From: Romanomermis culicivorax
Lineage: Eukaryota; Nematoda; Enoplea; Mermithida; Mermithidae
Assembly: GCA_963922205.1 (NCBI GenBank)
Contig: CAWUHX010000209.1
Coordinates: forward strand, 558,001 to 622,000
Direction: 5' to 3'
Length of the DNA: 64,000 bases
The position numbers were made by a program, and so were the translations under genes. Under the pieces are notes generated by a model. It searched no databases, was not told where the DNA came from, and saw nothing but the letters and a program-made list of their open reading frames with translations. Within the stretch, counting starts at the first letter, position 1, and each line of letters opens with the position of its first letter. Positions 19,223 through 53,440 of this stretch are shown in pieces.

Positions 19223-19701
19223 TGTTGAGGTGGTCTCAGGTGCACGTGTTCAGCTTCCGGCGTCGGTGCACAGGCGGTTGGACGCGGCGAAAAGTGGCGA
19301 AAAAAGAATGATATATTTGCATAGATGTATGCTGCCACTGTTTCGCGGTTTTTCTGTTTGTTAGTCAGTGTTGAAAAAGATTTGTTTATGGAGCAACGCC
19401 GCCATCGCCTTTCTACAATATTTTTGTTTATTATTGTTTATTTGGCGTCGCCACTAGCTACCCAATACACATTGAACCCGTAAGTGTATTGTTTTGTGAG
19501 CGTAGAGGTTGGAGTTTATAAGAGTAGGAAGTGGAGACTTGGGTAGGATCTCCTGAGGTACGTGCCAAGGTGTTCTGCCTGAGGTTTAGTGAAAGTTCTG
19601 GCGAGTATCTGGTGAAATGTCTGGGAGAGTTTTGTGTTTATTGTTGTTGTTTGCCTGTGGTCAGAACTGTTGCATACTGTTGACCCCACAGCTGCCTAAC
19701 A
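19223..19701 (+). repeat. 5' LTR of copy A, 479 bp
   Basis: It begins TGTTGAGGTGG and ends CTGCCTAACA, so it has the TG...CA ends with a short TGTT/AACA inverted match. It is the same length as the LTR at 52962-53440. Inside lie TTTATAAG at about 19514, a possible core promoter element, and a consensus splice donor CCC|GTAAGT at 19480. The donor is conserved in all three LTRs of the window. Confidence 0.9.
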
Positions 19702-19703
19702 AG

Positions 19704-19721
19704 TGGTGGACTCTTAACGCC
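19704..19721 (+). promoter_or_regulatory. Primer-binding site, copy A
   Basis: TGGTGGACTCTTAACGCC begins two bases after the LTR. It starts with TGG as expected for pairing with a tRNA 3' CCA end. I could not assign the tRNA. Copy B has the identical 18 bases at 39556-39573. Confidence 0.75.
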
Positions 19722-19728
19722 TCTCACG

Positions 19729-21627: not shown

Positions 21628-22346
21628 CTATTCTCTCAAAGGAGTGGCTACAATTGGTTCAAAAGGTGGATAAATTACAAGTTACTCAGAATGAAGCTTT
21701 AAAAGAGTTGACTACTGTGAAGACTGCGTCTGCTGAAAAGCAGAAGCAGTTGAAGCAGCAGAGATCCTACTGCATATATCATAAGAATAATACTCATGCT
21801 ACGGAGGAGTGTAAGACATTAGCATACCGGCGTCAGCAACAGCAACGCGGTGGATTTAACCGTGGCATGTCTAATCAGTATTATGGTGGTGATAGGAATG
21901 CTTCATTTAGAGGAAGTTTTAGAGGTAGAGGTGGACCTCAATTTGGATTTAGAGGAAGAGGAAGAGGTGCCTATTATGTAGGATTCCCCGAAGAAGATCA
22001 AATGTACGGGTATGACCCAGAGTTCGAGAGATACAGGGAATTCTGCAGACTTAGGGAACAAGGCATCCAGTTGCAGAGGCTGCCTCAGTTGATGTTACCT
22101 GCATCAACTAGTCAACCCGCTATTCAGGCTAGTACCATCCAGGATCAGTCTGGATCATTTGTTTCGAACCAGTCGCAACCTAGTTTGCATAACCTAATGG
22201 TGACAAGCCGTACGGATGTGGATGATGAAAGTGATCAGAGTAGAAACAAATCTTCTAGTTTGGTTCTTGGAAGTATTATTCACCTGGATAAAGGTGACAC
22301 CTCTAGAGAAAGTGAAAGAAAGAGATTTGGCTCACGTGAAGTATGA
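21558..22346 (+). pseudogene. Gag, copy A, nucleocapsid part
   Basis: This frame continues Gag after the 1-base loss. It carries a zinc knuckle of the CX2HX4HX4C type ([14 protein letters not shown]) and then an Arg/Gly-rich stretch ([27 protein letters not shown]), an RGG box expected to bind the genomic RNA. The frame is broken again near 22290, where copy A has one extra A (GGATAAAGG against GGATAAGG in copy B). In copy B the same region is one continuous frame with Gag and protease, so Gag and Pol appear to be a single reading frame in this family. Confidence 0.85.
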
Positions 22347-23320
22347 AAGAAAAGCAACAGACATAGAGAGAAGGTTGTTGGAAAATTATCCGAAAATGGT
22401 TCCTTTCTACATAAATGTAGTTATTAAAGAAACAGCTACCAGAGCTTTAATTGATACAGGAGCTCAGTGTACGGTCATGTCTTCTAAGCTCCTGAAAAGG
22501 GCATTAGATGTTGATTATACAGTGTACCCTCGTATCTTTAAAGTGACTGTAGCTGATGGAAAAGTTGTGCATGCCTATGGGTATGTACCAGTTTGTATGA
22601 AGACTGAATTTGGAAGTTTTCCAGTCAATGCTATAGTGTTGCCGTATGCAGGTGAGGACCTGATTTTGGGCACAGATTTTTTAGCACACCCAGATTTAGG
22701 TGTGGTGATTGATTTTAAAAGGAATGCCATGACGATACAGGGCATTGAGAAAAGGATTGACGTAGTTCAAGTTCCTTCTGTAACTACTGTGCAAACGGTA
22801 ATGGAAGAAGTGACTAAAGTCAGTGTGGCGTCGACTGATTGCATAAATCAAATTGTTTATCCAAAAGTCTGTCTGCTAAAGACAACTGTTGCAATTGTTG
22901 CATGTAGTAAAACCTACATTCCATATGGAACAGATGTTTTGATGAAGGCAAAACTTTGGGATCAACATGGAGTTGCCACGTTGAACGGAATTATTGTCGA
23001 ATCAAAGGATTCTGAAAGGAAGTTCAGAATGGAGAAAGCAGTTGTAGACGGATCACAAGAGGAGTTTGTAGTACTAATCTCCAATACCACGGGTTCTGGT
23101 TGTCGGTTTGAGAGAGATCAAATCATTGGCTTCACAGAATCTATGCTTATTGAAGATGATGATACGTACAAAAAGATGAAGGAAATGAAAAAGATAAAGG
23201 AGGAAAAGGAATATCAGACCTGTATGGTAAAGGAAGGAATGCCTGCATTATCAAAAGCTGATTCTGTAGAGTTCTATACTTCACTATGCAAGATGATATC
23301 AAAGGCAAAAATTTCAGAAG
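22290..23320 (+). pseudogene. Aspartic protease region, copy A
   Basis: The retropepsin-like domain has active-site motif [14 protein letters not shown] and, about 70 residues on, LILGTDFL, the second conserved loop. It would mature Gag-Pol. An insertion near 22290 brings it in and a 1-base loss near 23319 (GAAGGAAGAAAACG against GAAGAGAAGAAAACG in copy B) takes it out of frame with RT. The stretch after the protease has no domain I recognise and probably links to RT. Confidence 0.85.
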
Positions 23321-25478
23321 GAAGAAAACGGAAGCTATAGAGTCTTTTTTGAAGTACAGAGATGTCTTTAGCTTGCCTGGTGATCCAGCTACTACAACCC
23401 CAGCTCTGACATGTAGGATAGATACAGGAGATGCAAGACCTGTGGCAAAAAGATATTACAGAGCTTCAATTAATAGTCGGCCTGGAGTGAGGCGACATAT
23501 AAAGGAGATGTTGGATCAGGGAGTGATCGAGCCCTCGAAGTCACCGTGGGCTGCACCCTTGTTCCTGGTTGGAAAGAAAGATGGAACTATGAGACCAGTA
23601 GTTGATTTTAGAGGTATAAACGAAGTGACCAAGGATGATAAATATCTGATCCCGAGAATGGATGACTATTTAGATTGCCTTGGAAGAGCTAAGTTCTATA
23701 CGACTCTAGATTTGAAGTCGGGATATTGGCAGGTCCTGATGGAGGAGGAGAGCAAGGAGAAAACGGCTTTTATATGCCAAGAGGGCTTGTTTCAGTTTAA
23801 AGTGATGCCGTTCGGGTTGAAGAATGCACCTGCTGAATTCCAAAGGATGATGGAGAGAATCCTTGGGGATTTGGTATGGAAAATTTGCCTAGTGTACATA
23901 GATGATATTATCATCTTCTCGAATACGTTCGAGGAATACTTAGAGAATTTGAAAATGGTGCTAGAAGCGTTGAGGAAGGCGAAGTTGACTCTTAAGCCGG
24001 AGAAATGTGAATTTCTTCCCGAGGAAGTGCACTTTTTAGGACACATCTTGGACGCGAACGGAATTTCTCCGGATCCTAAGAAGGTCAAGGCCATAACGGA
24101 ATTTCCATTCCGGGATTCTGTTAAGAAAATGCAAAGATTCCTAGGTATGCTACAATGGTGTAAGAAATTTATACCAGACCTAGCAGCACTAGCTGAACCC
24201 TTGTACAAATTAACAGGCAAGAAGGGAACATGGAATGTGACGGAGTTGCATTACACAACTTTTGAGAAGCTCAGAGTAGCATTGACCTCAGTACCTTTCT
24301 TAAGACATCCAATTTTAGATGGATCTGCGCGATTCATTCTTCAAACGGATGCCAGTGGAATTGCATTGGGAGCAGTGTTATGTCAAGAGACTGACTCGGA
24401 ATGTTGGGTGATAGCCTTCAATAGTCGGATATTGCGGGCGGAGGAAAGGAAATGGTGCGCCACCAAAAGAGAATGCTTAGCTGTGGTTTACAGCCTTAAA
24501 ATTTACAAACATTATCTTTTGGGCCAAAAGGTCAGGATTCAAACTGACCACAAACCATTATTATCAATGAGGGTCAACACACAGACTAATGACAAACTCA
24601 AGAGGTGGTACGCATTCATTTGCCAGTTTAATCACAAGTTGGAGTACGTGCCTGGCAGACAGAATGCTATGGCAGATTTCCTCTCCAGGAAGGAGGAACT
24701 GGATGAACAGAAAGAGAAGTTGCCACCAAAATGGGAGCTTATCTTTCAGAAAGAAGAAGTGAATTCTCTTGCTGAAGACGAAGTCCTCAACCAAAACCAC
24801 AAAGTTTTAGTGAAACAACTTCGGGAACTCAGAGGAGATGAAGTGGATGAGGCTGTAGGAGTCTTCACTCCGGTGAAGATGGCCACAGCTTCAGTGGCTT
24901 CAATGTATGATGTTAGTGATGAAACTCGACTTAATATTTCTCCAGAATTTGATAATTATCAAACACCTGAGAAATATGAAATTGAGGCGGTAGTCACTAG
25001 ACAAATGGCAAAAAACTTGCAGCAGGAGGAAAAAGGACATCCTCCTGGGCAAGCAAAACCGGTAGAGGAAGTGAAGAGAATTTTTGAACCGAAGGAGAAG
25101 GAGTTTGAAGAAGCCCCAGAAATTGAAGATGGTAGACTGAAAGGGCTTATCTCAATTGCCTTGATGTCAAAGTTGCAAGGAAAGGATAAAGATTTAAAGG
25201 TGATCTTCGAGAAACTAGGTGCTAATAGTAGCACCAAGTCTCAAAGTAACTTTTATATCGATCAAGGGATACTATATAGAGAGACTTTTGGCGAGGCAGA
25301 GGATCAAGTTGTTGTGCCCTCTGTTCTCAAAAAAGTTGTCCTGCATCAGTATCATGGAGCAGTGATGATGACGCATCAAGGGTTTAAGAGAACCCTTGCT
25401 ATTATCAAAAAGCGGTTCTGGTGGCCGAGCATCGAGAAGGATGTTCGGAGCTGGATCAGCTTTTGTCCGATATGTTAA
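23320..25478 (+). pseudogene. Reverse transcriptase, RNase H and integrase zinc finger, copy A
   Basis: The frame is open from 23286; its first part overlaps the shifted end of the protease frame. Numbering from 23286, RT has LDLKSGYW with the catalytic Asp at residue 142, FKVMPFGLKNAP, and a YIDD box at 204-207. RNase H follows with TDAS (Asp 355) and TDHKPL. A linker of about 170 residues rich in Glu/Lys precedes the integrase HHCC finger (H..H near HHxxMMTHQG, then CPIC). A TAA stands exactly after CPIC, in frame with integrase. Copy B has the same TAA, so it predates the split of the two copies or is a normal feature of the family. Confidence 0.88.
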
Positions 25479-25481
25479 ATT

Positions 25482-26459
25482 GTGACTCCAGGAAAGGCTA
25501 CTATACTGCCATTAAATCCAATTATTCCTAGAGGACCATTTGACATAGTCTCTGTAGATATTGTGGGAATATCTCCCATGAGCGAGAAAAGACCGTATGT
25601 GATAGTATTTCAAGATTACTTTACAAAATGGGTGGAAGCAGAAATGATTCCGGATCAATCTGCTGTAACCATTGTGGACAGTTTTCTTCGGAATATTGTG
25701 TTCAGGCATGGAACCCCGGTGAAATTGTTGAGTGATAATGGTTCATGCTTTACAGCTGATTTGATGATGTCAGTGTGTAAATTATTGGAGTGTCAGAAGA
25801 TTTTTACAACTGCCTACCATCCACAAGGAAATGGAATGGTTGAAAGGTTTAACCAAACCTTGATCAAGCAGTTGCGAAAGGTTGCTATAGAGGATTCAGA
25901 TAAGTGGGACAGATATTTGCAATCTGTCATTTTTGCGTATAATGCCACACCTCATACCTCAACGAGATGTTCTCCATTTGCCTTATTGAGAGGTCATGAG
26001 GCTAATTTTGGCATTAGTATTGGTGTTGCTAGAAATATAGTTCTGCCAATGAACTATGAGGCTTATAAGCATATACTAACCGAAAGTTTAGTAGAAACTT
26101 ATGAAGTCATTTCAGAGAATATCAGGAAGGCTGCGGAGAGCAGTAAAAAGTTTTTTGACCGTAAAGCAAAAGCTCATGATTATTCCGTCAATGATTGGGT
26201 TTTGCTGAAAGTCGATAAACAGAAAAAACTGGGTCTGCCGTGGCAAGGACCATATGTTGTTACTGATAATAGGAGATTATCAGAGAATGTGCTTGAAATC
26301 GCTCACTGGAGAGAGCCGCTGAAAAAGCAGGTGGTATCCGTGAGCAGGTTAAAGCACTTTCGCTACGAGACCGGCAGATGGCTGCAGTCTAACGACGTGT
26401 CATCTAAGGACACGCAGTTTACTGTAGATTCAAAAATTAGTAATTACAAACTGCCGTAG
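25482..26459 (+). pseudogene. Integrase catalytic core and C-terminus, copy A
   Basis: This is in the same frame as the RT-RNase H segment, one stop codon downstream. The catalytic triad is present with the canonical spacing: Asp in SVDIVG (residue 26 of this segment), Asp in LLSDNGSCF (85) and Glu in MVERFNQTL (121), giving D,D-35-E. A C-terminal domain with WVLLKVD and LPWQGPYVV follows, and the frame ends at 26459. It would insert the cDNA into the genome. There is no ATG suited to independent translation, so it depends on reading through the TAA. Confidence 0.88.
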
Positions 26460-26905
26460 CGCGTAGCGCTGTTTTTCGCGTGTGTGTATGTGCGTGTGAA
26501 TACCCCCCCTATTTTTCGTCCCCAATATTGTATTTAAGTACAAATTGTAATTAATTGTATTTATTTATGTATTTATCGCGTATTTATTGCGTATTTTTAA
26601 ATTTTTCTCGCGTAAATCTTTAAATTTTCAAAAATTCTTGGTAAAAAACCACTCTTCGCAAAAACCTAAAATTTTAAAAACTTTTTCGCGGCCTAAAGCG
26701 TAAATTTCCCCGAGTCCGATTAATTTTTGCGGAGGAAATAGTTAGTTGTTGCCCCCCAATTCTGTGAATATTGGAAGAATTGGGAAAACCGCTGAGTTTT
26801 AGAGTGAAAATAGACAAAAAGGTAGCGAAAGCGGAAACTTTGTCGATTTTTCAGCTCTTATAAAAAATTATTAAAAATTTTCGAAAATTGATAGCGCGTC
26901 GGATT
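26460..26905 (+). other. Post-integrase non-coding region of copy A, ending at a breakpoint
   Basis: This matches the region after integrase in copy B (46604-47060): TGTGTGTATG, a C-run, TGTATTTAT repeats, GGAGGAAATAGTTAGTTGTT and the acceptor-like GATTTTTCAG. Similarity ends just after AAAATTGATAGCGC. In copy B that point leads into the 3' gene; here unrelated sequence follows. Copy A has therefore lost its 3' gene and its own 3' LTR at this point. Confidence 0.75.
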
Positions 26906-39075: not shown

Positions 39076-39553
39076 TGTTGAGGTGGTCTTAGGTGCACAT
39101 GTCCAGCTTCCGGCGTCGGTGCGCAGGCGGTTGGACGCGGCGAAAAGTGGCGAAAAGAAATGCTAAATTTGCATAGGTTATTTCTGCCACTGTTTCGCGG
39201 TTTTTCTGTTTGTTAGTCAGTGTTAGATTTATTTGTTTTTATGGAGTGACGCCGCCATCGCCTTTCTACAATATTTTTGTTTATTATTGTTATTTTGGCG
39301 TTGCCACTAGCTACCCAATACAACTTGAACCCGTAAGTGTATTGTTCTGTGAGCGTAGGGGAAGGAGTCTATAAGGTCAGGATTGGAGACTTGGGTAGGA
39401 ACTCCTAAGGTACGTGCCAAGGTGTTCTGCCTGAGGTTTAGTGAAAGTTCTGGCGAGTATCTGGTGAAACGTCTGGGAGAGTTTTGTGGTTGTTGTTGTT
39501 GTTAGCCTTTGGTCAGAACTGTTGCATAGTGTTGACCCCACAGCAGCCTAACA
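39076..39553 (+). repeat. 5' LTR of copy B, 478 bp
   Basis: It begins TGTTGAGGTGGTCTTAGG and ends GCAGCCTAACA. It carries the conserved CCC|GTAAGT donor at about 39333 and GTCTATAAGG near 39370. It differs from the LTRs at 19223 and 52962 at many more positions than those two differ from each other (for example GAAATGCTAAATTTGCATAG). It is therefore not the natural partner of the 3' LTR at 52962. Confidence 0.9.
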
Positions 39554-39555
39554 AG

Positions 39556-39573
39556 TGGTGGACTCTTAACGCC
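39556..39573 (+). promoter_or_regulatory. Primer-binding site, copy B
   Basis: TGGTGGACTCTTAACGCC lies two bases after the LTR, identical to copy A. This shows both copies use the same tRNA primer. Confidence 0.75.
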
Positions 39574-39580
39574 TCTCACG

Positions 39581-42500
39581 ACGGATAACCGGAGAACCAC
39601 CAGAAAAATAACTAAACCTCCTGGGTTTTACTTGCAGTCACATACCGGAAAAGTGAAGAAGATGAGTATTCCGGTAGGGAAAACGTTGAGGACTCCTCCT
39701 AGGTCACACGAACCTAGTGTTTCGAATCTCGACTCTGCTGAAGAACACGCAGCGGTAGAAAAGGTTCAAGCACAGGCGCCTGAGACTGAAGGAAGGAGAG
39801 AGAGTGGAATTGCCGAAATGGCAAGAGTTGAAGAAGAGTTGAGGAGAAGTGGTTTTGAGATGGCTAGGAGAGCCGAGATTGAAACTACTGTAAGTGGTAG
39901 TGTCAGAGGTCAGCAGACCTTTGAGAAGGAGAGACCGACGTTGCCCTCGAAGTTGGTCCATCCGATGGCCGAGACGCTGGAGGAGATTAGACGGAAATCG
40001 AAACCGGCGTGGAGGTCAAACATGGTGGACATGAATTACGACGAATATTACGAGGACGCGCCGGCCGATTTATACGACAACAAATATTCGAGGCGATACG
40101 ACCCCGAAATTAAGAATTGGAGTCGACGAGAGGATCCGAGGGATCGAGTCGATCCCAAGGATTTACGGATTAACGCGCTGGAGAAGAAAATGGAATTATT
40201 AATAAAAGTAATCGAAAGCGCGCAGGTCAAGGAAAAGGAGTCGGAGGATGATCAACGGAGGAAGATAGGTGAGTCTTCTTACCTTGAGAATAGAGTTGAG
40301 AGAGTTAGTGAACCTAAGAGAGAGGTTCATTCGGAAGTTTATGTCAGGTCTCAAGATGATAGAGACAAATATTCGGCTAGAGATAGAGGTTGGACTGAGG
40401 AGCCGCAGAGTTCGAGGAATGCTGAACAAGCACAATCGAATGCCTACGGTTACTCAGAGAATAGGAGGTCTAGGGAAAGGAAAGTGACTATTTGCGACGA
40501 ATCGTCCCAGGGAGAGGATAGGTTTTCTCGTCCTACTCCTTGGAGAGATACCGCAAATAGAGCTGACCTTAGCCCTGAGAGGAGAAGAAAGAGAAAGTCA
40601 AAGAGTCGAAAGAGATCTCACAGATCTAGAGCTAGAAGTAGACATTACTCAGATAGTGATAATAGCAGTTCATCTACTTCGAACTCTAGCTCAAGTGTTG
40701 AAGTTGATGTGAGAGATGTGGTAAAGGCCTTGAAACATAGACCTTTACATGATAGTATAAAGGCGACGGAGGCTTTGAAGTTTTTTACTGATCTGGAAAG
40801 TGAATTTCTGGAGAATACGGCTGATAAAGTGAAGAAGGAGTGTTTGAGAAGTTTGTCTCAGAACAGGGCGAGGAGGATAGCGAGAACATCCTCAAGTTAT
40901 ACAGAAGCGCGGAGAAATATTTTAAAGTATCTCGCGCCGACTTATGATTTGACGATGCTCAAAAGAGAGTTGTTTAATATGAAACAGGAAGAAGGCGAGT
41001 CAGCCTTAGAGTTTTTAAAGAGATTGAGTAATCATGTGGATCTGGTCTATGCAGATCAGAGTGATCAAGTAAGGCAAGAGAGCATTATTAATGCCTTCAT
41101 TTATAAGAGTAGTCCGTTGTATCAGACGGAGTTGCAGGAAGTATTGTCATCGATGAAAACATGGCAAGACCTTGCATACGCCCTAACTCAGATTGACAAA
41201 AAGTATAGGAATGTGTTTACTGCTTTTGGAGCCAAGGATAAACCAATTGTGGTGAATCAAGTTGTGGCGGAAGAGATGTGCCCGGAAATTGCTTTTGTCG
41301 GGAATGCTCCGTATGGAAGTACTAAAAAGTATAACCAGACGAAGTCAAGACCACAAAATCAGTTGCAAAAGGCAGTAGGAGAGGAGAAAAGTGAGGAGAA
41401 TGCGGAAGAGATGTTACCTGGTCTGTCGCCTCGTGATGTCAAAAAGTCTAACGAGGAGCAGGCCAAGGAGTCTTTTCTAGCTATTCTCTCAAAGGAGTGG
41501 CTACAATTGGTTCAGAAAGTAGATAAATTACAAGTTACTCAGAGTGAAGCCTTAAAAGAGTTGACTACTGTGAAGGCTGCAGCTGCTGAAAAGCAGAAGC
41601 AGTTGAAGCAGCAGAGACCCTATTGCATTTATCATAAGAATAATACTCATGCTACGGAAGAGTGTAAAACGTTAGCTTACCGGCGTCAGCAACAGCAACG
41701 CGGTGGATTTAACCGTGGCATGTCTAATCAGTATTATGGTGGTGATAGGAACGCTTCATATAGAGGAAGTTTTAGAGGTAGAGGTGGACCTCAGTATGGA
41801 TTTAGAGGAAGAGGAAGAGGTGCCTATTATGTAGGATTCCCCGAAGAAGATCAAATGTACGGGTATGACCCAGAGTTTGAGAGATACAGGGAATTCTGCA
41901 GACTCAGGGAACAAGGCATCCAGTTGCAGAGACAGCCTCAGTTGATGTTACCTGCACCAACTAGTCAACCTGCTATTCAGAATAGTACCGTCCAGGATCA
42001 GTCTGGATCATTTGTTTCGAACCAGTCGCAACCTAGTTCGCATAACGTAATGGTGACAAGCCGTACGGATGTGGATGATGAAAGCGAAAAGAGTAGAAAC
42101 AAATCTTCTAGTTTGGTTCTCGGAAGTATTATTCACCTGGATAAGGTGACACCTCTAGAGAAGGTAAAAGAAAGAGATTTGGCTCATGTGAAGTATGGGA
42201 GAAAAGCAACGGACGTGGAGAGAAGGTTGTTGGAAAATTATCCGAAAACGGTTCCGTTCTATATAACTGTGGTTATTAAAGAAACGGCTACCAGAGCTTT
42301 AATCGATACAGGAGCTCAGTGTACGGTCATGTCTTCTAAGCTCCTGAAAAGGGCATTAGACGTTGATTATACAGTGTACCCTCGTATCCTTAAAGTCACT
42401 GTAGCTGATGGAAAAGTTGTGCATGCCTATGGGTATGTACCAGTTTGTATGAAGACTGAATTTGGAAGTTTTCCAGTCAATGCTATAGTGTTGCCAGATG

Positions 42501-43411
42501 CAGGTGAGGACCTGATCTTGGGCACAGATTTTTTAGCACACCCAGATTTAGGTGTGGTGATTGATTTTAAAAGAAATGCCATGACGATACAAGGCATTGA
42601 GAAAAGGATTGACGTAGTTCAAGTTCCTTCTGTAACTACTGTGCAAACGGTAATGGAAGAAGTAACTAAAGTCAGTGTGGCGTCGACTGATTGCATAAAT
42701 CAAATTGTTTATCCAAAAGTTTGTCTACTAAAGACAACTGTTGCAATTGTTGCATGTAGTAAAACCTACATTCCATATGGAACAGATGTTTTGATGAAGG
42801 CAAAACTTTGGGATCAACATGGAGATGCCACGTTGAACGGAATTATCGTCGAATCAAAGGATTCTGAAAGGAAGTTCAGAATGGAGAAAGCGGTTGTAGA
42901 CGGATCACAAGAGGAGTTTGTAGTACTAATCTCCAATACCACAGGTTCTGGTTGTCGGTTTGAGAGAGATCAAATCATTGGCTATACAGAATCTATGCTT
43001 ATTGAAGATGATGATACGTACAAGAAGGTGAAAGAAATGAAGAAGATAAAGGAGGAAAAGGAATATCAAACTTGTATGGTAAAGGAAGGAATGCCTGCAT
43101 TATCAAAAGCTGATTCTGTAGAGTTCTATACTTCACTATGCAAGATGATATCGAAGGCAAAAATATCGGAAGAGAAGAAAACGGAAGCTATAGAGTCTTT
43201 GTTGAAGTACAGAGATGTCTTTAGCTTGCCTGGTGATCCGGCTACTACAATCCCAGCTCTGACGTGTAAGATAGATACAGGAGATGCGAGACCTGTAGCA
43301 AAGAGATATTACAGAGCTTCAATTAATAGTCGGCCAGGAGTAAGGCGACATATAAAGGAGATGTTGGATCAAGGAGTGATCGAGCCCTCGAAGTCACCGT
43401 GGGCTGCACCC
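39581..43411 (+). pseudogene. Gag-protease-RT start, copy B, one frame but without its ATG
   Basis: Compared with copy A, the Gag start ATG is ACG at 39581; the next in-frame ATG (KKMSIPVG) is at about 39662. From there one frame of about 1,250 codons covers the SR-like block, the Gag capsid domain, the CX2HX4HX4C knuckle, the RGG box, the protease ([22 protein letters not shown]) and the start of RT, up to WAAP. This shows the ancestral arrangement was a fused Gag-Pro-RT frame with no frameshift site. RT is then cut by a 325-bp insertion at 43412. Confidence 0.87.
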
Positions 43412-43480
43412 AATTTTTCAAACTTATTTTCACTCCGAAAAATTCCATATAATTTTCATTTCTAAAAGTTATCAACTTCA

Positions 43481-43549
43481 TTGGTGGGCAGTTCAAAAAG
43501 CAGCAGGTACGCTGCTACTTGCCAAAGGTTGTAGGTTCACGACCACCAA
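43481..43549 (+). repeat. First tRNA-like unit of the SINE, degenerate
   Basis: TTGGTGG at the start can pair with CCACCAA at the end like an acceptor stem. A GCAGC/GCTGC hairpin sits in the middle, where the anticodon arm would be, and GGTTCACGACC resembles a B box with an extra base. It is too irregular to call a gene. Confidence 0.35.
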
Positions 43550-43609
43550 GCATTGGAGTTGCTAAAAGACCAAAGCCTAGGGGAGCACCTTAATCTGGGT
43601 TCACCTCGT

Positions 43610-43680
43610 GGTGTGGTGGTCTAGTGGTGAGGACATCAGCCCGGAATGCTGGTAACCCAGGTTCGACTCCTGGCTGCACC
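43610..43680 (+). tRNA. tRNA-like unit with intact A and B boxes, probable SINE head
   Basis: All four arms can be drawn. The acceptor GGTGTGG pairs with CTGCACC with two wobbles. The D arm is GTCT/GGAC around AGTGGTGA. The anticodon stem TCAGC/GCTGG has a seven-base loop CCGGAAT. The variable loop is four bases, and the T arm is CCAGG/CCTGG with loop TTCGACT. The A box TGGTCTAGTGG and B box GGTTCGACTCC fit pol III consensus. In the anticodon loop, position 33 is C rather than U and the formal anticodon would be GGA, yet there is no long variable arm as in tRNA-Ser. It is therefore more likely a tRNA-derived SINE promoter than a working tRNA. Confidence 0.5.
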
Positions 43681-43736
43681 CAATTTTTCAAACTTATTTT
43701 CACTCCGAAAAATTCCATATAATTTTCATTTCTACA

Positions 43737-45623
43737 AGACCAGTAGTTGATTTTAGAGGTATAAACGAAGTGACCAAGGATGATAAATATCCCATCCCGA
43801 GAATGGATGACTATTTAGATTGCCTTGGAAGAGCGAAGTTTTATACGACTCTAGATTTGAAGTCAGGATATTGGCAGGTCCCGATGGAGGAGGAAAGCAA
43901 GGAGAAAACGGCTTTTATATGCCAAGAGGGCTTGTTTCAGTTTAAAGTGATGCCGTTTGGATTGAAGAATGCACCTGCTGAATTCCAAAGGATGATGGAG
44001 AGAATCCTTGGGGATTTGGTATGGAAAATTTGCCTAGTGTATATAGATGATATTATCATCTTCTCGAATACGTTCGAGGAACACTTAGAGAATTTGAACT
44101 TGGTGCTAGAAGCGTTGAGGAAGGCGAAGTTGACTCTTAAGCCGGAGAAATGTGAATTTCTTCCCGAGAAGGTGCACTTTTTAGGACACATCTTGGATGC
44201 CAACGGAATTTCTCCGGATCCTAAGAAGGTCAAGGCGATAACGGAATTTCCATTCCCGGATTCTGTTAAGAAAATGCAAAGATTCCTAGGTATGCTACAA
44301 TGGTGTAAGAAATTTATACCAGACCTAGCAGCACTAGCTGAACCCTTGTACAAATTAACGGGTAAGAAGGGAACATGGAATGTAACGGAGTTACATTACA
44401 CAACTTTTGAGAAGCTCAAAGTAGCATTGACCTCAGTACCTTTCTTAAGACATCCAATTTTAGATGGATCTGCACGATTCATCCTTCAAAGGGATGCCAG
44501 TGGAATTGCATTGGGAGCAGTGTTATGTCAAGAGACTGACTCGGAACGTTGGGTAGTTGCCTACAATAGTCGGATATTGCGGGCAGAAGAAAGGAAATGG
44601 TGCGCCACCGAAAGGGAATGCTTAGCTGTCGTTTACGGCCTTAAAATTTATAAACATTATCTTTTGGGCCAAAAGGTCAGGATTCAAACTGACCATAAAC
44701 CATTATTATCAATGAGGGTGAATACACAGACTAATGACAAACTCAAGAGGTGGTACGCATTCATTTGCCAGTTTAATCACAAGTTGGAGTATGTGCCTGG
44801 CAGACAAAATGCCATGGCAGATTTCCTCTCCAGGAAAGAGGAACCGGATGAACAGAAAGAGAAGTTGCCACCAAAATGGGAGCTTATCTTTCAGAAAGAA
44901 GATGTGAAATCTCTTACTGAAGACGAAGTCCTTAGCCAAAACCACAAAGTTTTAGTGAAACAACTTCGGGAACTCAGAGGAGATGAAGTGGATGAGGCTG
45001 TAGGAATCTTCACTCCGGTGAAGATGGCCACAGCTTCAGTGGCATCAAACTATGGTGTTAGTGATGAAACTCAACTTAATATTTCTCCAGAATTTGATAA
45101 TTATCGAACGCCTGAGAAATATGAAATTGAGGCGGTAGTCACTAGACAAATGGCAAAAAACTTGCAGCAGGAGGAAAAAGGACATCCTCCTGGGCAAGCA
45201 AAACCTAAAGAAGAGGTGAAGAGAATTTTTGAACCGAAGGAGAAGGAGTTTGAAGAAGCCCCAGAGATTGAAGATGGTAGACCGAAAGGGCTTATCTCAA
45301 ACGCCTTGATGTCAAAGTTGCAAGGAAAGGATAAAGATCTAAAAGTGATCTTCGAGAAACTAGGTGCTAGTAGTAGCACTAAGTCTCAAAGTAACTTTTA
45401 TATCGATCAAGGGATACTATATAGAGAGACTTTTGGCGAGGCAGAGGATCAAGTTGTTGTCCCCTCTGTTCTCAAAAAAGTTGTCCTGCATCAGTATCAT
45501 GGAGCAGTGATGATGACGCATCAAGGGTTTAAGAGAACCCTTGCTATTATCAAAAAGCCGTTCTGGTGGCCGAGCATCGAGAAGGATGTTCGGAGCTGGA
45601 TCAGCTTTTGTCCGATATGTTAA
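43737..45623 (+). pseudogene. RT remainder, RNase H and integrase zinc finger, copy B
   Basis: Homology to copy A resumes at AGACCAGTAG after the SINE. The segment has LDLKSGYW, FKVMPFGLKNAP, the YIDD box, RNase H and the HHCC finger. Near the first RNase H aspartate, copy B reads QRDAS where copy A has QTDAS. It ends with CPIC followed by the same TAA as copy A. No second break is seen within the segment. Confidence 0.87.
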
Positions 45624-45626
45624 ATT

Positions 45627-46421
45627 GCGACTCCAGGAAAGGCTACTATACCGCCATTAAATCCAATTATTCCTAGAGGACCATTTGACATAGTCTCTGT
45701 AGATATTGTGGGAATATCTCCCATGAGCGAGAAAAGACCGTATGTGATAGTATTTCAAGATAACTTTACAAAATGGGTGGAAGCAGAAATGTTTCCGGAT
45801 CAATCTGCTGTAACCATTGTGGACAGTTTTCTTCGAAATATTGTGTTTAGGCATGGAACCCCGGTGAAATTGTTGGGTGATAACGGTTCATGCTTTACAG
45901 CTGATTTGATGACGTCAGTCTGTAAATTGTTGGAGTGTCAGAAGATTTTCACAACTGCCTACCATCCACAAGGAAATGGAATGGTTGAAAGGTTTAACCA
46001 AACCTTGATCAAGCAGTTGCGAAAGGTTGCTATAGAGGATTCAGATAAGTGGGACAGATATTTGCAATCTGTCGTTTTTGCATACAATGCCACACCTCAT
46101 ACCTCAACGAGATGTTCTCCATTTGCCATATTGAGAGGTCATGAGGCTAATTTTGGCATTAGTATTGGTGTTGCTAGAAATATAGTTCTGCCAATGAACT
46201 ATGAGGCTTATAAGCATATACTAACCGAAAGTTTAGTAGAAACTTATGAAGTCATTTCAGAGAATATCAGGAAGGCTGCGGAGAGCAGTAAAAAGTTTTT
46301 TGACCGTAAAGCAAAAGCTCATGATTATTCCGTCAATGATTGGGTTTTGCTGAAAGTCGATAAACAGAAAAAACTGGGTCTGCCGTGGCAAGGACCGCAT
46401 GTTGTTACTGATAATAGGTGA
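45627..46421 (+). pseudogene. Integrase core, copy B, truncated by TGA
   Basis: It reads in frame after the shared TAA. The three acidic residues sit in the same contexts as in copy A, with LLGDNG for LLSDNG at the second. AGA in copy A (after VTDNR) is TGA here at 46419-46421, removing about the last 60 residues. The frame stays open beyond the stop to about 46603, so the stop is recent. No part of the catalytic triad is lost. Confidence 0.85.
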
Positions 46422-47086: not shown

Positions 47087-50000
47087 ATGTCCCAGCCCCC
47101 CAATGGACGCCGGACAAAGCAATACCTGGTCACGGACCCCCACGTGACCTACGGTCAGCCGCAGGTGCGGCAAAATAATCGGTATTTTCTAGTCGATGGT
47201 AAGCGACCTAAGTTTTTAAACTTAGTTAATCTTAAAAATTTATTGGGCAAAGCAGGATGTTATAGCCCACGGGTGTCTAGATGAAGGCCTAGACAATTGT
47301 AAAAATTTAGTGGGAACAAATTTGTTCTGTCAACTTGAAAAAGTGTGGCAAAGCTGCCGGTAGCGCAAAATTTGGACTTTTTGTGAAACTACATCATTCC
47401 TCTACACACATAGCGAGTTGAATAAATTCGTCTATGTGATGGGGAAGAAGTGGAGCGTAGCAACTAGTCGACTAGGGGTAGATAATTTCAAAATTATTTA
47501 AATTTTTAAATTCCATCTTAATTTAATTTTCTACGAATTTCCACATTTTGGGTAAATTAGTAAATATATTTTTAAATTCTTCTTGGAAATTCTTAATTTA
47601 TTAGTTGGATAGGCCGTTTTGGGCGTTGGATTGAGACGGCTAGCAGTCGAATGATGGAAGACGCAGGTGGTCTGTGCATGTACTCCCGTATAAGGTAGAA
47701 GTCGGGGCCGCACTTGTGTTTAACTATCTGCCAACACTAACCCAATATATGTTTGGTACCTTATTGTCCCCTGCTTGCAATTTCTTTTTTCTTTTTCCTT
47801 TTTGTGCTTACTATCTGTGGTGAAGGTAGAATTTAACCGATGTTTGTCCGCTTTGGGAAAAATTTTCATTAAAAAGTTGTAAACATTTCGCCTGAATTTT
47901 TTAGACTACAATGTCAAGCGCATTGTCAGAGTCCGTGAATGGGAACGGTGGTTCGCCACGAATTTTGGGAGATTTCTGTTGGAATTGACGGAACCGAAAT
48001 TGGTCGAAATAGGTAAGGTGGGGGAAATGATCGAAACCTTGAAGGTGAGCAGGTTTCGAGGACAGCCAATTATCGGGTTTGATACAGAGAAAGTTACTCA
48101 AGAGTATGTGAGTAAGGTTTTGGCGACTTCTGGGGTTGATAACCCAAAAGGGAAGGAGTTTGCGAGAGTCATTAGCTTCTCGACGGTAACTGGAGACACC
48201 TTTGTTGTAGATACTACGACAATCATGCCGAAGGAATGGACGCTCATTCATGAGCTCCTCGATTCGGACATGCTTCTCATTGGATACAACTTGGTTACAG
48301 ATCTGGTCGCCATCTGGAATGTTAATGGCGCAGGTAGAGAGCACCAGGATGTTGATCTAACACCGGAGATCAAGCATAGAGTAACATCTTTGTATGGCCG
48401 TTATTATGACGTAGCCAAGGTAGGAGACCAGTTGAACGGGAGATTTTTGGCAATGTCCAGGAAGTTGGGACTTTGCCCAGAGACTTTTAAGCTGAAAGGG
48501 TTGTTCACGGAGCTGTATCTGGCGGATATCGGTTATTTCCAAATCGATTTCCGTGAGAGAGCGCAAAGTGAACGATTCTGTAGGCATACGTTAACGCAGT
48601 TTGAAATACGGTATTCAGCACTGGACACCTACTACTCATTGTTGGTTTTCCTAGCGTTTTTCCACTATGAGTTAGCTATGGAAGTCAAGGTCGGATTCCA
48701 GTATTTTCCGCATGATTTGATGAAAGCGGATCAAATTCAGATAATGGCTTTCAGGTTGTATAGGTTTTTTAACATGATACATGGTGAAAATTTTCCGCAG
48801 ACTTTTTGCGGAAGTCCAGAGGTAGAAGAGCCGCAGTCATCGGCTATTTATCACGTGATGAGGCAGGAAGTGTATGCCCGTATGGCTGCCCAAATGGATA
48901 CCTCATTTGGAGGCTATACGGAGTACAGCTTCCCTCATTACGAGTCAAATCCGAAGAGAGGGAGAGAAGTAAGTATCCCTAAAGGTATTCATCCTGATTA
49001 TACCGTCAAGGAAAAAAGTAAGAATGTGGATGGTAACGATACGGTAAGTGAGGAAGAAGAGTTTGAAGAAGCTTTGTCGGAAAAGCAGATTAGAACTCGA
49101 ATTACGAAGAAGGTTGTAGATATGGTGAATCAAGGGAAGAGTTTCAGTAGACTTGATGAACCAGTATCTATGGTTTTGTACGAGAATTTCCTAAGGTATA
49201 GGAAAGAAACGAAGCAGTTGTTGGAGATAACATCTCTGGAAGTTGATTACCACGGGTATGAACTAGTCAGAGTTTCGAATGGTAAAGACTCGTATGTAAG
49301 ACAACACTGGAGTATGGATATCACTCCTTATTCTGAAATATTGAATGAGGACAATTTTAAGAATTTGGAGTCAGTGTGTAACAAAGTTCCACTTCAGTTT
49401 CATTTATTTTGGCCAGCTTGTAGAGAGGAAGTGGAAGAGTACCTTACCTCTCTCCTTGACCACAACTATTTGAGATCCTTTAGCCCTGAGGGAAAGGAAC
49501 AACTCTTGAAGATGTTGTGGAGGGGAGATAGGTATGGTCAGTATTTATCATTTTTGAATAGTCTTCCAGTAATGGAGGTGCATACGCCAACAAAGGGCAA
49601 TGCGATTACATGTTGGGGAAATCATTTCGGATTTTTGCCGATCCGATTTTGGCCCAAGACAAAGTCATGGGAGCAAAGACCGGAAGATAAGAGGAAGCAT
49701 TTGGCGGAGTGTCCGCAGTACAATGATAATCCGTACTGCTATCAGAGGTTTTACTTCCGCCAGATAGCATTCCGAGTTCCAGGTTTGCGATACCCAATAG
49801 ATATGAGTGAGGACGCAATGAAGGAGAATCAGAAGAAGAACGTGTTAGCGTATCAACCTGAATACATTCCAGGTTACGAGCCGCCATTTTTGGAGATGAT
49901 ATTGCTGTCCGATGCTCCAGGTTTCATGATTACGCATATTGGCGATAAGGTTGTAGTGAGGCCGACAGGTAAGCAGCCAGCAGTGCCGGTTACAGGCACT

Positions 50001-51203
50001 GAGGTAAGCACAACAGTGAGTGGACAATCTGGAGTTAATATGAATAGTATGGATAAGGTGCAGGGGATGCAGGCTGAGCCTGTTGCGGCGAAAGCACAGC
50101 AACAAGCGATACCTGCAGACCTCAACACCCCCATAGACTTGAATCAGATAGGAGACGATTTAGAAGTGGACAAGGAGGTCACTGTTGAATCATTGATACA
50201 GCCTGATCAAGAAACACAGGTAACCTCTTTACTAGATCAGACAGAGAGTCTACTTTCTGGAATGGATGTCAGGGCAGAGCAAATGCTGGATGAAAGCAAT
50301 CTGATAACGATTGCTGCAAGTCCAACAATAGAGGAGATTGAAGCAAGGCTCAGGGAGCGAGCTGAAAAGGAAATTGAAAGGCAGAAGGAGATTTTCGCTA
50401 AACAGCTTGCGGAGCAAAAAGCGAGATTAGATCAGCAGCAGAAGCAGCTGGAGCAGGTATTGGCTGGTTTTACTGCGCAGCCGACGCCTCTGGCAGCGCC
50501 TACAGTCGTGCAAGCTACGGCCATGCCGCCTACTGCTTATCATATCCCGAAATTGCCGGTGCAGCCAGCTAGTACGCAGGTCATCCAACCTGCGGTCAGC
50601 AAGGTTAGGCCGACAGTTCAAGTAGCGCCCAGAGATCCAAGTATGGACAGTGGTATACCAGGTATGTATACTGCCGAGGAAGTCAGAAAGTTCAGAGCCG
50701 AAGGTCGTACAAATGATCAGACTAAAAGATTAGGAAGGAGAAAGTTAGCCCGAAGAGCCAATAGGGCTAAGAGGAGAGATGAAGAGGATGTTATTGAAAT
50801 TAGTGATGGTGAAGGAGAACAGACAGGGAGTGCTATGTCTGTGGACTTGAAGTTTGCAGGATCTACAACTTTATTGATGGATTCAACCAAGTCCAAGACT
50901 GGAACTACGCCGACGAGCCTGATGCCTGGAACCAAAAGTTCTACAAGTCAGGTGCAGTCGACGGTTGCTTCGGCTAAAGTACCTAGTAAATCGTCTGCAT
51001 CTCAGGTAAGTGCAACGACGAAAAGTACTTTGGCTAAGCCCGTGTCTAAAGTGGATAAGACTTCTCAGCAGAACCAGAGCAGTTCCCCAGGGAAAAAAGT
51101 TGTTTCTAAACCCTCTACGTCGGAACCGACTAAACTGGTCAAGAGAAGTAGAGATAAGGAAGTAACTTTGGAGTACCTGAGTTCTGTTTTGAGAGACTAC
51201 TGA
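47087..51203 (+). CDS. Retrotransposon 3' gene with a DEDDy 3'-5' exonuclease domain, 1,136 aa
   Basis: The model is exon 1 47087-47198 (ATG, MSQPPNGRRTK), a 706-bp intron with donor G|GTAAGC and acceptor TTTTTTAG, then exon 2 47905-51203. The phase agrees (VD|DYNVKR). The N-terminal domain has the four acidic residues of RNase D/WRN/EXD2-type exonucleases: IIGFDTE (D97, E99), LIGYNLVTD (N166, D170) and IRYSALD (Y274, D278), plus hydrophobic strands around each. The YxxxD in motif III marks the DEDDy subclass. A central region of about 400 residues has no domain I recognise and includes Trp/Cys/His-rich CWGNHFGFLPIRFW. The last third is disordered with a Glu/Gln coiled coil (KEIERQKEIFAKQLAEQKAR). 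Domain order and place after integrase are unlike env: there is no signal peptide or membrane segment. The activity is inferred from motifs only. Confidence 0.75.
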
Positions 51204-52220
51204 TATGTCCATAAGAAGTTTCCCTTGGTGAAGGGAAGAATAGATTTTTCGACACCGGAGGTGATCGAATTTTTTGCTCAGGATATGCCAGATGATAATA
51301 GAAATCAAATCATCTGGGCATTGGTGAATAATGGAGTAGAGGAGCTTTACGAGAACTATGGGGATCACTTTGATGTTCAAGGTGGTTTCCTGTATGATCA
51401 TGTAAATGTTCCTGAGCCCATTTGGGAGTATATTTGGCTCAAGTTCATGCCAAATTGGTTTCATCATTTTGATGCGGAAATAGTAATGGCAGCCGTGAGA
51501 TACTTATGTACCATGGTTTTGCTAAAGTTAGAACAGCAGCAGTTAGGCTCAAGACATATTGGTGCAGTCGATGCACGGGCCAAATCATTTGTCATGGAAA
51601 GGTATTATTCTATCTATCTGCGGGGAGAAGGTAGTACTGCATTCAGGGAAGCATATGCCAACCGAATGCAGGAACACCAACAAACTGCAGTGGATATGGC
51701 AGCGAAAAGAAGGTTGTCAGACATGGTTCAGAAATTTTCTGGTAAATTCCAGAAGGCTGAGGATGAGGAGGGGCAACCCTTCAAGATTCCCATTTTAACA
51801 GAGAGACAACCTAGAGATACATCCAGGTCCAGGAGCCAGCACTCGCGACAATCGTCTCACTCGCAGGGTCGGCACCAGCCTGGAGTATTCAAATTACCAT
51901 ATGCGAATCAACAGAGTCAAGGAAGGTCCAGTACCTCAGCTTCTGGAGTATCTTCCGTAAGTTCCACTCAGGCCTCGTACCAGAGGGGAACTGGAGGGGG
52001 ATATGGCCGAGGCTGGGGTCAGGGACAGGGTCAAGGAAGACCCTTCAAAATGGTTAATCCGCAACCGTATAGAGGACAGGCGATGGGCGGACCCCCTCGT
52101 GCGGCCCAACCTCGAGGAGTTTTTGGGGGATTCCTCAGGGGTCGTCGAGCTCGGGGTGGTCCCTACCCTCGCCGTGGTAGCTTCCAATACGGCGGTCATG
52201 GTGGCGGCGGGCAACAATAA
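51204..52220 (+). CDS. RGG-box C-terminal part of the 3' gene, separated by one TGA
   Basis: This is the same frame as the exonuclease gene, directly after its TGA (LRDY, stop, YVHKKFPLVKG). About 338 codons are open. The first 150 residues look folded (PEVIEFFAQDMPDDN, EPIWEYIWLKFMPNWF). The rest is Ser/Gln-rich and ends in repeated Gly/Arg (GGGYGRGWGQGQGQGR, RGVFGGFLRGRRARGG), which suggests RNA binding. No ATG lies near the beginning, so separate translation is unlikely. More probably the two parts form one protein of about 1,475 residues, and the TGA is a point mutation or a readthrough site. Confidence 0.65.
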   Translation, partial: YVHKKFPLVKGRIDFSTPEVIEFFAQDMPDDNRNQIIWALVNNGVEELYENYGDHFDVQGGFLYDHVNVPEPIWEYIWLKFMPNWFHHFDAEIVMAAVRYLCTMVLLKLEQQQLGSRHIGAVDARAKSFVMERYYSIYLRGEGSTAFREAYANRMQEHQQTAVDMAAKRRLSDMVQKFSGKFQKAEDEEGQPFKIPILTERQPRDTSRSRSQHSRQSSHSQGRHQPGVFKLPYANQQSQGRSSTSASGVSSVSSTQASYQRGTGGGYGRGWGQGQGQGRPFKMVNPQPYRGQAMGGPPRAAQPRGVFGGFLRGRRARGGPYPRRGSFQYGGHGGGGQQ

Positions 52221-52961
52221 TTTCATATAGCCGCACACTTCTTGGACCAAAATTCGTTATTTCGTACAAATTGTATTTCAAAAAACACAAAATACAAAAA
52301 CACAAGTAAAATACAAAATACAAAAAAAATATATATCTCGTTTTATTGTTGCTTTAAAATTTTAAATTTTTTCTCGTTTCCGGTGCCCAAAAGCTGCCCG
52401 GCGAAATTCGTCTTTCCGTCCATCTTATTTCGGGCGTGTACATAGCCCTCCTATTTTTCTCGTTTACTTTCAGGGCCTGAAAAAGATGAAGATGTGAAAA
52501 TTTTAATTGCATTTATAAAATTTTTGTAATTAGATATTTGAAGTATTTTATGGACAATGTTTTTTACTGAGTAGATTTATATTGGACGGAGCGACATGGC
52601 GAGCGGCCGACCGTGGAGGAAGCGCACCTGAGGCACCTCATCACCGAAGCTGTAAAAACCAGTACATGGGAGAAGAGGAACGGCGACGCCCCGGATCTAG
52701 GCACAGATTGACGTCAAAGTTCAGGCTGAACTACGTTCGTGATCGTTTCCGGTAGCCTGAAAAGGAGTGCCCTGCCGAATGGATTGGTCAAGGTCGCCGT
52801 CACCTGAAGGACCTGGTAGGGGCTGGATCACATTTTGGAGGGGGTAGCCCCAAAAATTTGTTTTCCGAGGGGAAAACTGTTATGCAGTCGGGGCCTCAGT
52901 ATGAGACTCAGGCTGCAGAAAGGTTTTCACCTCCCGTTGGTCAGTTTTGAGGGCTGAGGGA
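52221..52961 (+). other. 3' untranslated region of copy B
   Basis: AT-rich, A-run-containing DNA comes first, then a GC-richer part from about 52580. The last bases before the LTR, GAGGGCTGAGGGA, are purine-rich and could serve as the polypurine tract; GGAGGGGG at about 52838 is an alternative. I see no gene. Confidence 0.5.
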
Positions 52962-53440
52962 TGTTGAGGTGGTCTCAGGTGCACGTGTTCAGCTTCCGGC
53001 GTCGGTGCGCAGGCGGTTGGACCCGGTGAAAAGTGGCAAAAAAAGAATGATATATTTGCATAGATGTATGCTGCCACTGTTTCGCGGTTTTTCTGTTTGT
53101 TAGTCAGTGTTGAAAAAGATTTGTTTATGGAGCGACGCTGCCATCGCCTTTCTACAATATTTTTGTTTATTATTGTTTATTTGGCGTCGCCACTAGCTAC
53201 CCAATACACATTGAACCCGTAAGTGTATTGTTTTGTGAGCGTAGAGGTTGGAGTTTATAAGAGTAGGAAGTGGAGACTTGGGTAGGATCTCCTGAGGTAC
53301 GTGCCAAGGTGTTCTGCCTGAGGTTTAGTGAAAGTTCTGGCGAGTATCTGGTGAAACGTCTGGGAGAGTTTTGTGTTTATTGTTGTTGTTAGCATGTGGT
53401 CAGAACTGTTGCATAGTGTTGACCCTACAGCTGCCTAACA
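52962..53440 (+). repeat. 3' LTR of the block, 479 bp
   Basis: It begins TGTTGAGGTGGTCTCAGG and ends CTGCCTAACA. It has the same length and most of the same bases as the LTR at 19223. It is followed by TTTC, the right copy of the target duplication, and then by penton coding sequence. Confidence 0.92.

What the first reader, a model, noticed from the sequence alone, without database searches (positions are those of the whole stretch)
47087..51203. A Ty3/gypsy retrotransposon 3' gene encoding a DEDDy 3'-5' exonuclease
Seen directly: a long gene in the env position carries DxE (GFDTE), NxxxD (GYNLVTD) and YxxxD (YSALD) in the right order and spacing for RNase D/WRN/EXD2-like exonucleases. Known: DEDDy enzymes trim RNA or DNA 3' ends, and the nematode protein MUT-7, a member of this superfamily, acts in small-RNA silencing of transposons. 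I know of no described LTR element encoding one. Inference: it may proofread or trim cDNA ends, mature tRNA primers, or destroy small RNAs or their templates as a counter-defence. The coiled coil and RGG tail would help it ride on element RNA.
Basis: partly seen in the sequence, partly recalled or inferred. Interest (0 to 1): 0.88.

Follow-up and report, generated by a model that had tools for sequence, protein, structure and literature searches.

The report
Retrotransposon gene encoding an RNA-trimming-type exonuclease
A recently active virus-like jumping gene in a mosquito-killing nematode carries, where related elements carry an envelope gene, a conserved gene for a nucleic-acid-trimming enzyme; a similar arrangement is known from rotifers, but here the gene appears to be spliced, is clearly under selection, and a stripped-down second element keeps one too.

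Summary
Confirmed and extended. The window lies in Romanomermis culicivorax. The env-position gene is real: exon 1 at 47087-47198, intron, long exon to 52220. D, E, D, Y and D of a DEDDy 3'-5' exonuclease are intact in 8 of 8 copies read and in a sister family (30% identity). PF01612 is the domain's only Pfam hit (E 6.7e-4, below the curated cut-off); 5 controls gave none. The gene belongs to the element: 110 of 150 scored exonuclease domains have the integrase 2372-2417 bp upstream; five LTR-bracketed copies show near-constant distances. It is selected: dN/dS 0.18 (8 copies), pN/pS 0.09 (4 sister copies). A second LTR element, without a recognisable RT, also keeps a DEDDy gene, more constrained than its integrase. 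The claim that no LTR element is known to encode one is wrong: bdelloid rotifer Juno and Vesta elements do (PMC5408684). New here: phylum, two-exon gene, intact DEDD, strong selection, RT-less keeper. Best guess: an RNP-borne RNA 3'-exonuclease; its target is unproven. AlphaFold from the single sequence failed (pLDDT 33).

The parts
39076..39553 (+). left LTR of the copy that holds the gene
   Evidence: direct repeat with 52962-53440; 92.4% identical over aligned bases, 90.7% by blastn with gaps
39536..43465 (+). gag, RG-rich region (by eye), aspartic protease, start of RT
   Evidence: PF13975 E 5.6e-10
43412..43736 (+). insertion inside the RT region of this copy (flanked by a 67-bp repeat); absent from the second copy
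43656..46421 (+). RT, RNase H, H2C2 and integrase core, interrupted by in-frame stops in this copy
   Evidence: PF00078 E 4.1e-38, PF17917 3e-29, PF17921 4.2e-15, PF00665 1.5e-12
47087..47198 (+). gene 3 exon 1 (ATG, 37 complete codons)
   Evidence: ATG, no stop and the same donor string in 8 of 8 copies; homologous exon in the sister family by tblastn
47199..47904 (+). gene 3 intron (GT donor, AG acceptor)
   Evidence: acceptor motif in 8 of 8 copies and in the sister family; sister donor G|GTAAGC at the same place; no transcript data
47905..52220 (+). gene 3 exon 2; in-frame stop 51201-51203 in this copy
   Evidence: 19 of 42 scored copies open for 1445 or more codons without a stop; stop absent in 7 of 7 other copies read
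48036..48689 (+). DEDDy 3'-5' exonuclease domain: D67, E69, D140, Y244, D248 in ORF numbering
   Evidence: PF01612 E 6.7e-4; five residues invariant with the sister family
50325..50474 (+). heptad-like charged helix, possible coiled coil (by eye, not computed)
   Evidence: ORF residues 815-864; similar stretch in the sister ORF
51204..52217 (+). C-terminal part with RG-rich tail
   Evidence: 8 RG in the last 150 residues of the L084 copy, 9 in the sister ORF
52930..52961 (+). stretch before the 3' LTR ending in a purine-rich run (likely polypurine tract), similar in the sister family
52962..53440 (+). right LTR
   Evidence: 97.7% identical to the LTR at 19223-19701
19223..26897 (+). second, truncated copy (left LTR, gag, pol); its similarity ends about 35 bp short of the gene 3 start

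Best explanation
The gene is the third (env-position) gene of a young, high-copy Ty3/gypsy family of Romanomermis culicivorax. It encodes a protein of about 1475 residues, probably translated from a spliced mRNA as retroviral env is, while the element's genomic RNA keeps the intron. The N-terminal part is a DEDDy 3'-5' exonuclease with intact catalytic residues; the rest supplies a conserved domain of unknown fold, a likely oligomerising helix and an RG-rich, probably RNA-binding tail. Mechanism (inferred; an RNA-directed nuclease role about 0.58 in all): it sits on the element's RNA-protein particle and trims or removes RNA 3' ends near that RNA. It may mature element or primer RNA ends, or erase the small RNAs, or their templates, that silence the element; the latter is the single role I find likeliest (0.25). 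Shown: anatomy, linkage, selection, conserved catalytic residues. Inferred: activity, substrate, splicing, RNP location.
For: Domain. Catalytic residues intact in 8 of 8 copies, in the sister-family ORF and in 4 of 4 sister copies. Linkage: integrase 2231-2261 bp upstream in 32 of 42 copies and 2372-2417 bp upstream in 110 of 150 exonuclease-domain hits. LTRs: 3' LTR found in 9 of 42 (1740-1764 bp downstream), 5' LTR in 7 of 42, both in 6 (five with 5' distance 8013-8040, one 9095); the LTR and integrase lists were capped. Sister family: pol 3905-3918 bp upstream in 26 of 33 ORF3 copies. Selection: dN/dS 0.18 over 28 pairs of 8 copies; variants shared by two or more copies 13 N to 61 S, p 3e-27 under site proportions; sister pN/pS 0.09 over 6 pairs of 4 copies. 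Recent activity: LTR pairs 98.1-100% identical in 6 of 7 pairs read, 92.5% in one. Exon 1 with ATG, donor and acceptor shared with the sister family. RNA rather than RT fidelity: an LTR element without a Pfam-recognisable RT keeps a DEDDy ORF with dN/dS 0.11 against pN/pS 0.40 for its integrase end, same 10 copies, slightly different counting. Host context: no piRNAs and no 5'-triphosphate (22G-type) small RNAs detected in R. culicivorax, DNA methylation machinery present (PMC4323106, passages).
Against: PF01612 score below the curated cut-off for gene 3 and for the sister ORF. Single-sequence AlphaFold gave pLDDT 33, so no structural support. Single-sequence PDB searches found no exonuclease; profile comparison with RNase D was not significant; the PDB profile search put EXD2 third at E 0.54. 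The ExoII asparagine is replaced in the sister ORF. Within the family exon 1 is no less variable than the intron (15 of 112 against 75 of 700 sites, 8 copies; spacer before it 109 of 466), so exon 1 shows no constraint of its own there and the intron may do more than get removed. No transcript, protein or activity data. The silencing role rests on retention and host context alone; PMC5408684 notes that self-limiting elements would be out-competed, if the enzyme aided silencing instead.
Confidence: 0.8

Rival explanations
1. The exonuclease acts on DNA: it trims or proofreads the 3' ends of the element's cDNA before integration.
For: DEDDy enzymes such as WRN may act on single-stranded DNA (PMC5408684 section 3.3). 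The gene lies beside an integrase. The second family's best PDB profile hit is WRN.
Against: An LTR element without a recognisable RT keeps a DEDDy ORF under stronger constraint than its integrase; it could still serve a partner's cDNA. The RG-rich tail suggests RNA.
Confidence: 0.22
2. It is a pseudo-nuclease that only binds RNA, as Maelstrom and EXD1 are described in PMC5408684 (passages).
For: The ExoII asparagine is lost in the sister ORF; the long non-catalytic parts are as constrained as the domain (dN/dS 0.17-0.18 against 0.20).
Against: All four acidic residues and the tyrosine are kept in 8 of 8 copies and in the sister family.
Confidence: 0.15
3. It does an env-like job (cell exit and entry) despite the enzyme fold.
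For: Env position and probable splicing.
Against: No 19-residue window at or above 1.6 Kyte-Doolittle in gene 3 (top 1.58); the sister ORF has 3 windows, top 1.79. No fusion protein hit in Pfam.
Confidence: 0.04
4. The gene is a host gene that happened to lie beside or be caught by one copy.
For: In the window the second copy ends before the gene.
Against: At least 42 full-length copies and 150 domain copies, near-constant distances to integrase and LTRs, and the same gene in a sister family.
Confidence: 0.01

Closest known systems
Bdelloid rotifer LTR retrotransposons Juno and Vesta with DEDDy-type ORF3 (PMC5408684: abstract, passages, section 3.3)
   Same: LTR element, ORF3 after pol coding for an RNase D-like DEDDy exonuclease; acquired at least twice
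   Different: Different phylum. Rotifer Juno, Vesta and TelKA families carry a dUTPase; Pfam finds none in this gag-pol. The paper reports DEDD changed to DEED, and no coiled-coil or TM domains in its DEDDy ORFs; here DEDD is intact in a long two-exon gene with a heptad-like helix (by eye) and strong purifying selection. No rotifer sequence was available for comparison.
Terminons (giant Penelope-like retroelements of rotifers; PMC6431247, passages)
   Same: retroelement carrying a DEDDy exonuclease among accessory genes
   Different: Athena-type Penelope-like RT and telomeric, endonuclease-deficient elements, not LTR elements with integrase
Dada DNA transposons (PMC3706591, passages)
   Same: mobile element with a DEDDy exonuclease domain holding all four catalytic residues (in Laccaria and Ectocarpus)
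   Different: the domain lies inside a DDE transposase, not in a separate retroelement gene
Cellular DEDDy exonucleases: MUT-7, WRN, RRP6, EXD2, RNase D
   Same: catalytic motifs and PF01612
   Different: host enzymes; gene 3 shows no significant sequence match to any solved one

Membership tests
DEDDy 3'-5' exonuclease (PF01612) | ExoI DxE, ExoII D, ExoIII YxxxD in order | tested here: met
DEDDy 3'-5' exonuclease (PF01612) | profile score above the curated cut-off | tested here: not met
   19.9 against 23.6 bits, E 6.7e-4; met by the second family, 41.7 bits. Hence I call gene 3 DEDDy-like by motif and weak profile match, not a filed Pfam member
DEDDy 3'-5' exonuclease (PF01612) | DnaQ-like fold | tested here: inconclusive
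   AlphaFold pLDDT 33 from one sequence; no fold search was run on it
DEDDy 3'-5' exonuclease (PF01612) | metal-dependent 3'-5' nuclease activity | not testable with these tools
   needs an assay
Ty3/gypsy LTR retrotransposon | PR-RT-RNase H-IN order between LTRs | tested here: met
Ty3/gypsy LTR retrotransposon | target-site duplication | tested here: inconclusive
   window copy: flanks of its own two LTRs differ; TTTC flanks the left LTR at 19223 and the right LTR at 53440, so the locus looks rearranged
Juno/Vesta (bdelloid LTR elements) | dUTPase between protease and RT | tested here: not met
   no dUTPase hit up to E 1 in the three gag-pol pieces
Juno/Vesta (bdelloid LTR elements) | DEDDy-coding ORF3 after pol | tested here: met
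Juno/Vesta (bdelloid LTR elements) | pol phylogeny with rotifer families | not tested
   no named Juno/Vesta sequences at hand
retroviral env | transmembrane anchor | tested here: not met
   top 19-residue hydropathy 1.58 in gene 3; but 3 windows over 1.6 (top 1.79) in the sister ORF

The most novel reading that the evidence does not exclude
Mermithid LTR elements carry their own RNA 3'-exonuclease as a silencing suppressor that destroys small RNAs or RdRP templates in a host reported to lack piRNAs; it is valuable enough that a second element lost RT and protease but kept the exonuclease.
Probability: 0.25. Interest if true: 0.85.

Novelty: new variant of a known kind. Interest (0 to 1): 0.64.

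Why it matters
It suggests that DEDDy exonuclease genes in LTR elements are not a rotifer oddity, and adds a high-copy, recently active family, clear purifying selection on the gene, a sister family for comparison and a natural variant without a recognisable RT that keeps the enzyme. That makes the question of what a retroelement gains from a 3'-5' exonuclease testable, and offers a candidate element-encoded answer to small-RNA silencing in a nematode reported to lack piRNAs.

Tried and rejected
Protein search with the whole ORF found nothing at E 0.001 (4692 candidates) and with the first 347 residues only three R. culicivorax proteins (E up to 1). The viral-contig scan found no relative. Ubiquitin-like PDB hits to residues 775-855 were rejected: the low E-values sum up to eight weak repeats of about 4 bits each. 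Haemoglobin hits (best E 0.057) likewise. AlphaFold on 306 residues failed, so no fold search was run. Profile comparison of gene 3 with RNase D was not significant. In the codon-usage table the row 'pol2' was read out of frame and is dropped; the rest (first two thirds of gene 3 against gag, pol and IN 0.59-0.78, its tail 0.44-0.49, out-of-frame control 0.34-0.43, a neighbouring ORF on the other strand against gene 3 0.24-0.40) is weak support and not used. The idea that the gene is a single host gene was dropped.

Counts from the genome search are lower bounds: only the best candidates are scored (42 of 4273; 40 of 1315; 144 of 7552; 150 of 2880; 33 of 4844). Missing co-locations may be due to these caps: C132, C41 and C29 lack an integrase row but have both LTRs in place. 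dN/dS used 8 of 42 gene 3 copies (the best-scoring ones, handed out as loci), 4 of 33 sister copies, and 10 of the 11 second-family loci with an ORF of 608 or more codons among 30 loci (L096, 614 codons, left out); codons with stops were skipped; searches used a simpler count for codons with several changes. One search's script failed to locate exon 1 in 2 of 8 copies by its search string, using the donor instead, found ATG, no stop and the donor in 8 of 8. One search failed (file name); one search answered that question.

No other odds were changed.
Full report
What was checked. The ORF at 47883-51203 exists and carries GFDTE, GYNLVTD and YSALD at the stated spacing. Pfam gives PF01612 (3'-5' exonuclease) as the sole hit to the isolated domain (E 6.7e-4, 19.9 bits; cut-off 23.6); in the whole ORF it falls to E 0.049. 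NCBIfam's only hit to the domain is a 3'-5' exonuclease/polymerase (E 0.0029); PHROGs gives a family of unknown function at E 0.026. Five control sequences, one reversed and four shuffled, gave no Pfam hit. AlphaFold on the single sequence failed (mean pLDDT 33), so the fold is not shown.

Host. The window lies in an assembly of 359,112,060 bases in 595 contigs, the size and count given for R. culicivorax version 2 (359.1 Mb, 595 scaffolds; PMC10879605, passages). Three R. culicivorax proteins match the first 347 residues at 83-92% identity over 11-26% of the query.

The gene belongs to the element. A genome search scored 42 full-length copies of the 1106-residue query at 92-100% identity (4273 candidates); 25 of 42 had no stop in the match and 19 of 42 were open for 1445 codons or more. 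The stop at 51201 is absent from 7 of 7 other copies read, so the gene ends at 52220. The integrase lies 2231-2261 bp upstream in 32 of 42; with the short exonuclease query, 110 of 150 scored hits have it 2372-2417 bp upstream, and 110 of 144 scored integrases have the exonuclease downstream. An LTR lies 1740-1764 bp downstream in 9 of 42 and upstream in 7; six copies have both, five of them with the 5' LTR 8013-8040 bp away and one at 9095 (only 40 of 1315 LTR candidates were scored). Of seven LTR pairs read, six are 98.1-100% identical and one 92.5%: the family moved recently.

A sister family keeps the gene. A pol relative (64% identical) led to a second family with at least 48 copies. One copy read downstream of pol has a single 1396-codon ORF, 30% identical to gene 3 over the alignment and 39% over the exonuclease part, with D67, E69, D140, Y244 and D248 invariant; the asparagine of ExoII is not. 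It has a similar exon 1 beginning with ATG, the donor G|GTAAGC and the acceptor motif of the window's element, and a similar stretch before the 3' LTR position. Of 33 scored copies of this ORF, 26 have pol 3905-3918 bp upstream. PF01612 is again the only Pfam hit but weaker (E 0.012 for the N-terminal 355 residues).

Against the splice model: within the window's family exon 1 varies at 15 of 112 sites and the intron at 75 of 700 (8 copies), so exon 1 is not the more constrained of the two; variable sites fall 6, 2 and 7 on codon positions 1, 2 and 3. ATG, open frame and donor are nevertheless kept in 8 of 8, the acceptor in 8 of 8.

Selection. Among 8 gene 3 copies dN/dS is 0.18 (exonuclease 0.20, middle 0.18, residues 700-1106 0.17). 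Variants shared by two or more copies are 13 nonsynonymous to 61 synonymous, single-copy ones 107 to 107; both depart from site proportions (p 3e-27 and 5e-18, sites taken as independent). Four sister copies give pN/pS 0.09. The two gag-pol copies in the window give dN and dS of 0.041 and 0.138 (gag part), 0.021 and 0.118 (RT to zinc finger) and 0.015 and 0.052 (integrase): gene 3 is constrained about like pol.

A second kind of DEDDy element. PF01612 itself rings at 80 places in this genome, none of them beside a scored window-type integrase. Of the 30 read, 24 share the ExoI string GLDAEF or GLDTEF in their longest frame, with ORFs of up to 614 codons; their profile hits WRN, a MUT-7 homologue and RRP6 in the PDB. 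Of the 80, 34 have, 2.8-5.0 kb upstream, a match to an ORF of 1155 codons with a zinc knuckle, RNase H and integrase zinc domain but no RT in Pfam, whole (E up to 1) or in two pieces (E up to 10). In the copy at C69, the one read from LTR to LTR, two 620-bp repeats, 99.8% identical, bracket the two ORFs within about 7.5 kb, and GGTG flanks both outer ends. So a short LTR element without a recognisable RT keeps an exonuclease. Over the same 10 copies the exonuclease has dN/dS 0.11 and the integrase end, about 300 codons, pN/pS 0.40. Against three more distant copies the exonuclease has dN 0.13-0.17 and dS 0.8-1.2. Profile comparison aligns its ExoI and ExoII with gene 3 (E 9.8e-5, probability 58%). 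Whether the two share one origin is open.

How it most likely works. Position and splice sites suggest expression from a spliced mRNA, as env is; an intron kept through retrotransposition means the genomic RNA stays unspliced (inference). The RG-rich tail and heptad-like helix point to an RNA-bound oligomer (inference; coiled coil not computed). Retention by an element without a recognisable RT speaks against proofreading of the element's own RT and for a benefit to the RNA that encodes it. R. culicivorax was reported to lack piRNAs and 5'-triphosphate small RNAs, clade I nematodes to have an RRF-3-type RdRP, and R. culicivorax to have DNA methylation machinery (PMC4323106, passages), so small RNAs or their templates are plausible targets. 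I put an RNA-directed nuclease role at 0.58 in all, silencing suppression being its largest single share (0.25); DNA-end processing 0.22; RNA binding without cleavage 0.15.

What is known. Bdelloid rotifer Juno and Vesta elements carry DEDDy-type ORF3s (PMC5408684: abstract, passages and section 3.3 read). The authors proposed 3'-end processing, mentioned a mut-7-like role, report DEDD changed to DEED, and found intragenomic variation of the env-like and GDSL-like ORF3s they sequenced mostly neutral. PMC6338049 (passages) already lists DnaQ-like exonuclease domains among accessory domains of LTR elements. Terminons (PMC6431247) and Dada transposons (PMC3706591) also carry DEDDy domains (passages read). 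I found no report of one in a nematode LTR element in the searches, which cover open-licence PMC papers only. Hence: a new variant of a known kind.

Noticed in passing
L122:4526-5145, L122:5317-8784, L097:1147-2970, L141:633-1252 (contig C69): Recently inserted 7.5-kb LTR element with zinc knuckle, RNase H and integrase zinc domain but no RT or protease hit, followed by a DEDDy exonuclease ORF; the exonuclease is the more constrained of the two ORFs.
   Followed up: partly
window 19223-26897 and 39076-53440: The left LTR at 19223 and the right LTR at 53440 are 97.7% identical and share the flank TTTC, while the LTR at 39076 differs (92.4-92.6%): one insertion seems to have been split by, or recombined with, a second copy.
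   Followed up: partly
window 43412-43736: Insertion in the RT region with a 67-bp direct repeat; it contains a tRNA-like stretch (by eye).
   Followed up: no
window 47199-47904: The gene 3 intron is less variable among 8 copies (75 of 700 sites) than the spacer before exon 1 (109 of 466), which hints at a function of the intron DNA or RNA.
   Followed up: no
window 1-13562, 37350-39075, 59225-64000: Long arrays of a 47-bp tandem repeat, in both orientations.
   Followed up: no
window 17279-18259 (-), 54565-55465 (-), 56048-56881 (-): ORFs that look by eye like pieces of a Maverick/Polinton; not searched.
   Followed up: no
window 45621-45623 and 25476-25478: Both gag-pol copies in the window share an in-frame stop at the same place in integrase, although other copies in the genome have gag-pol open for about 2258 codons.
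   Followed up: no
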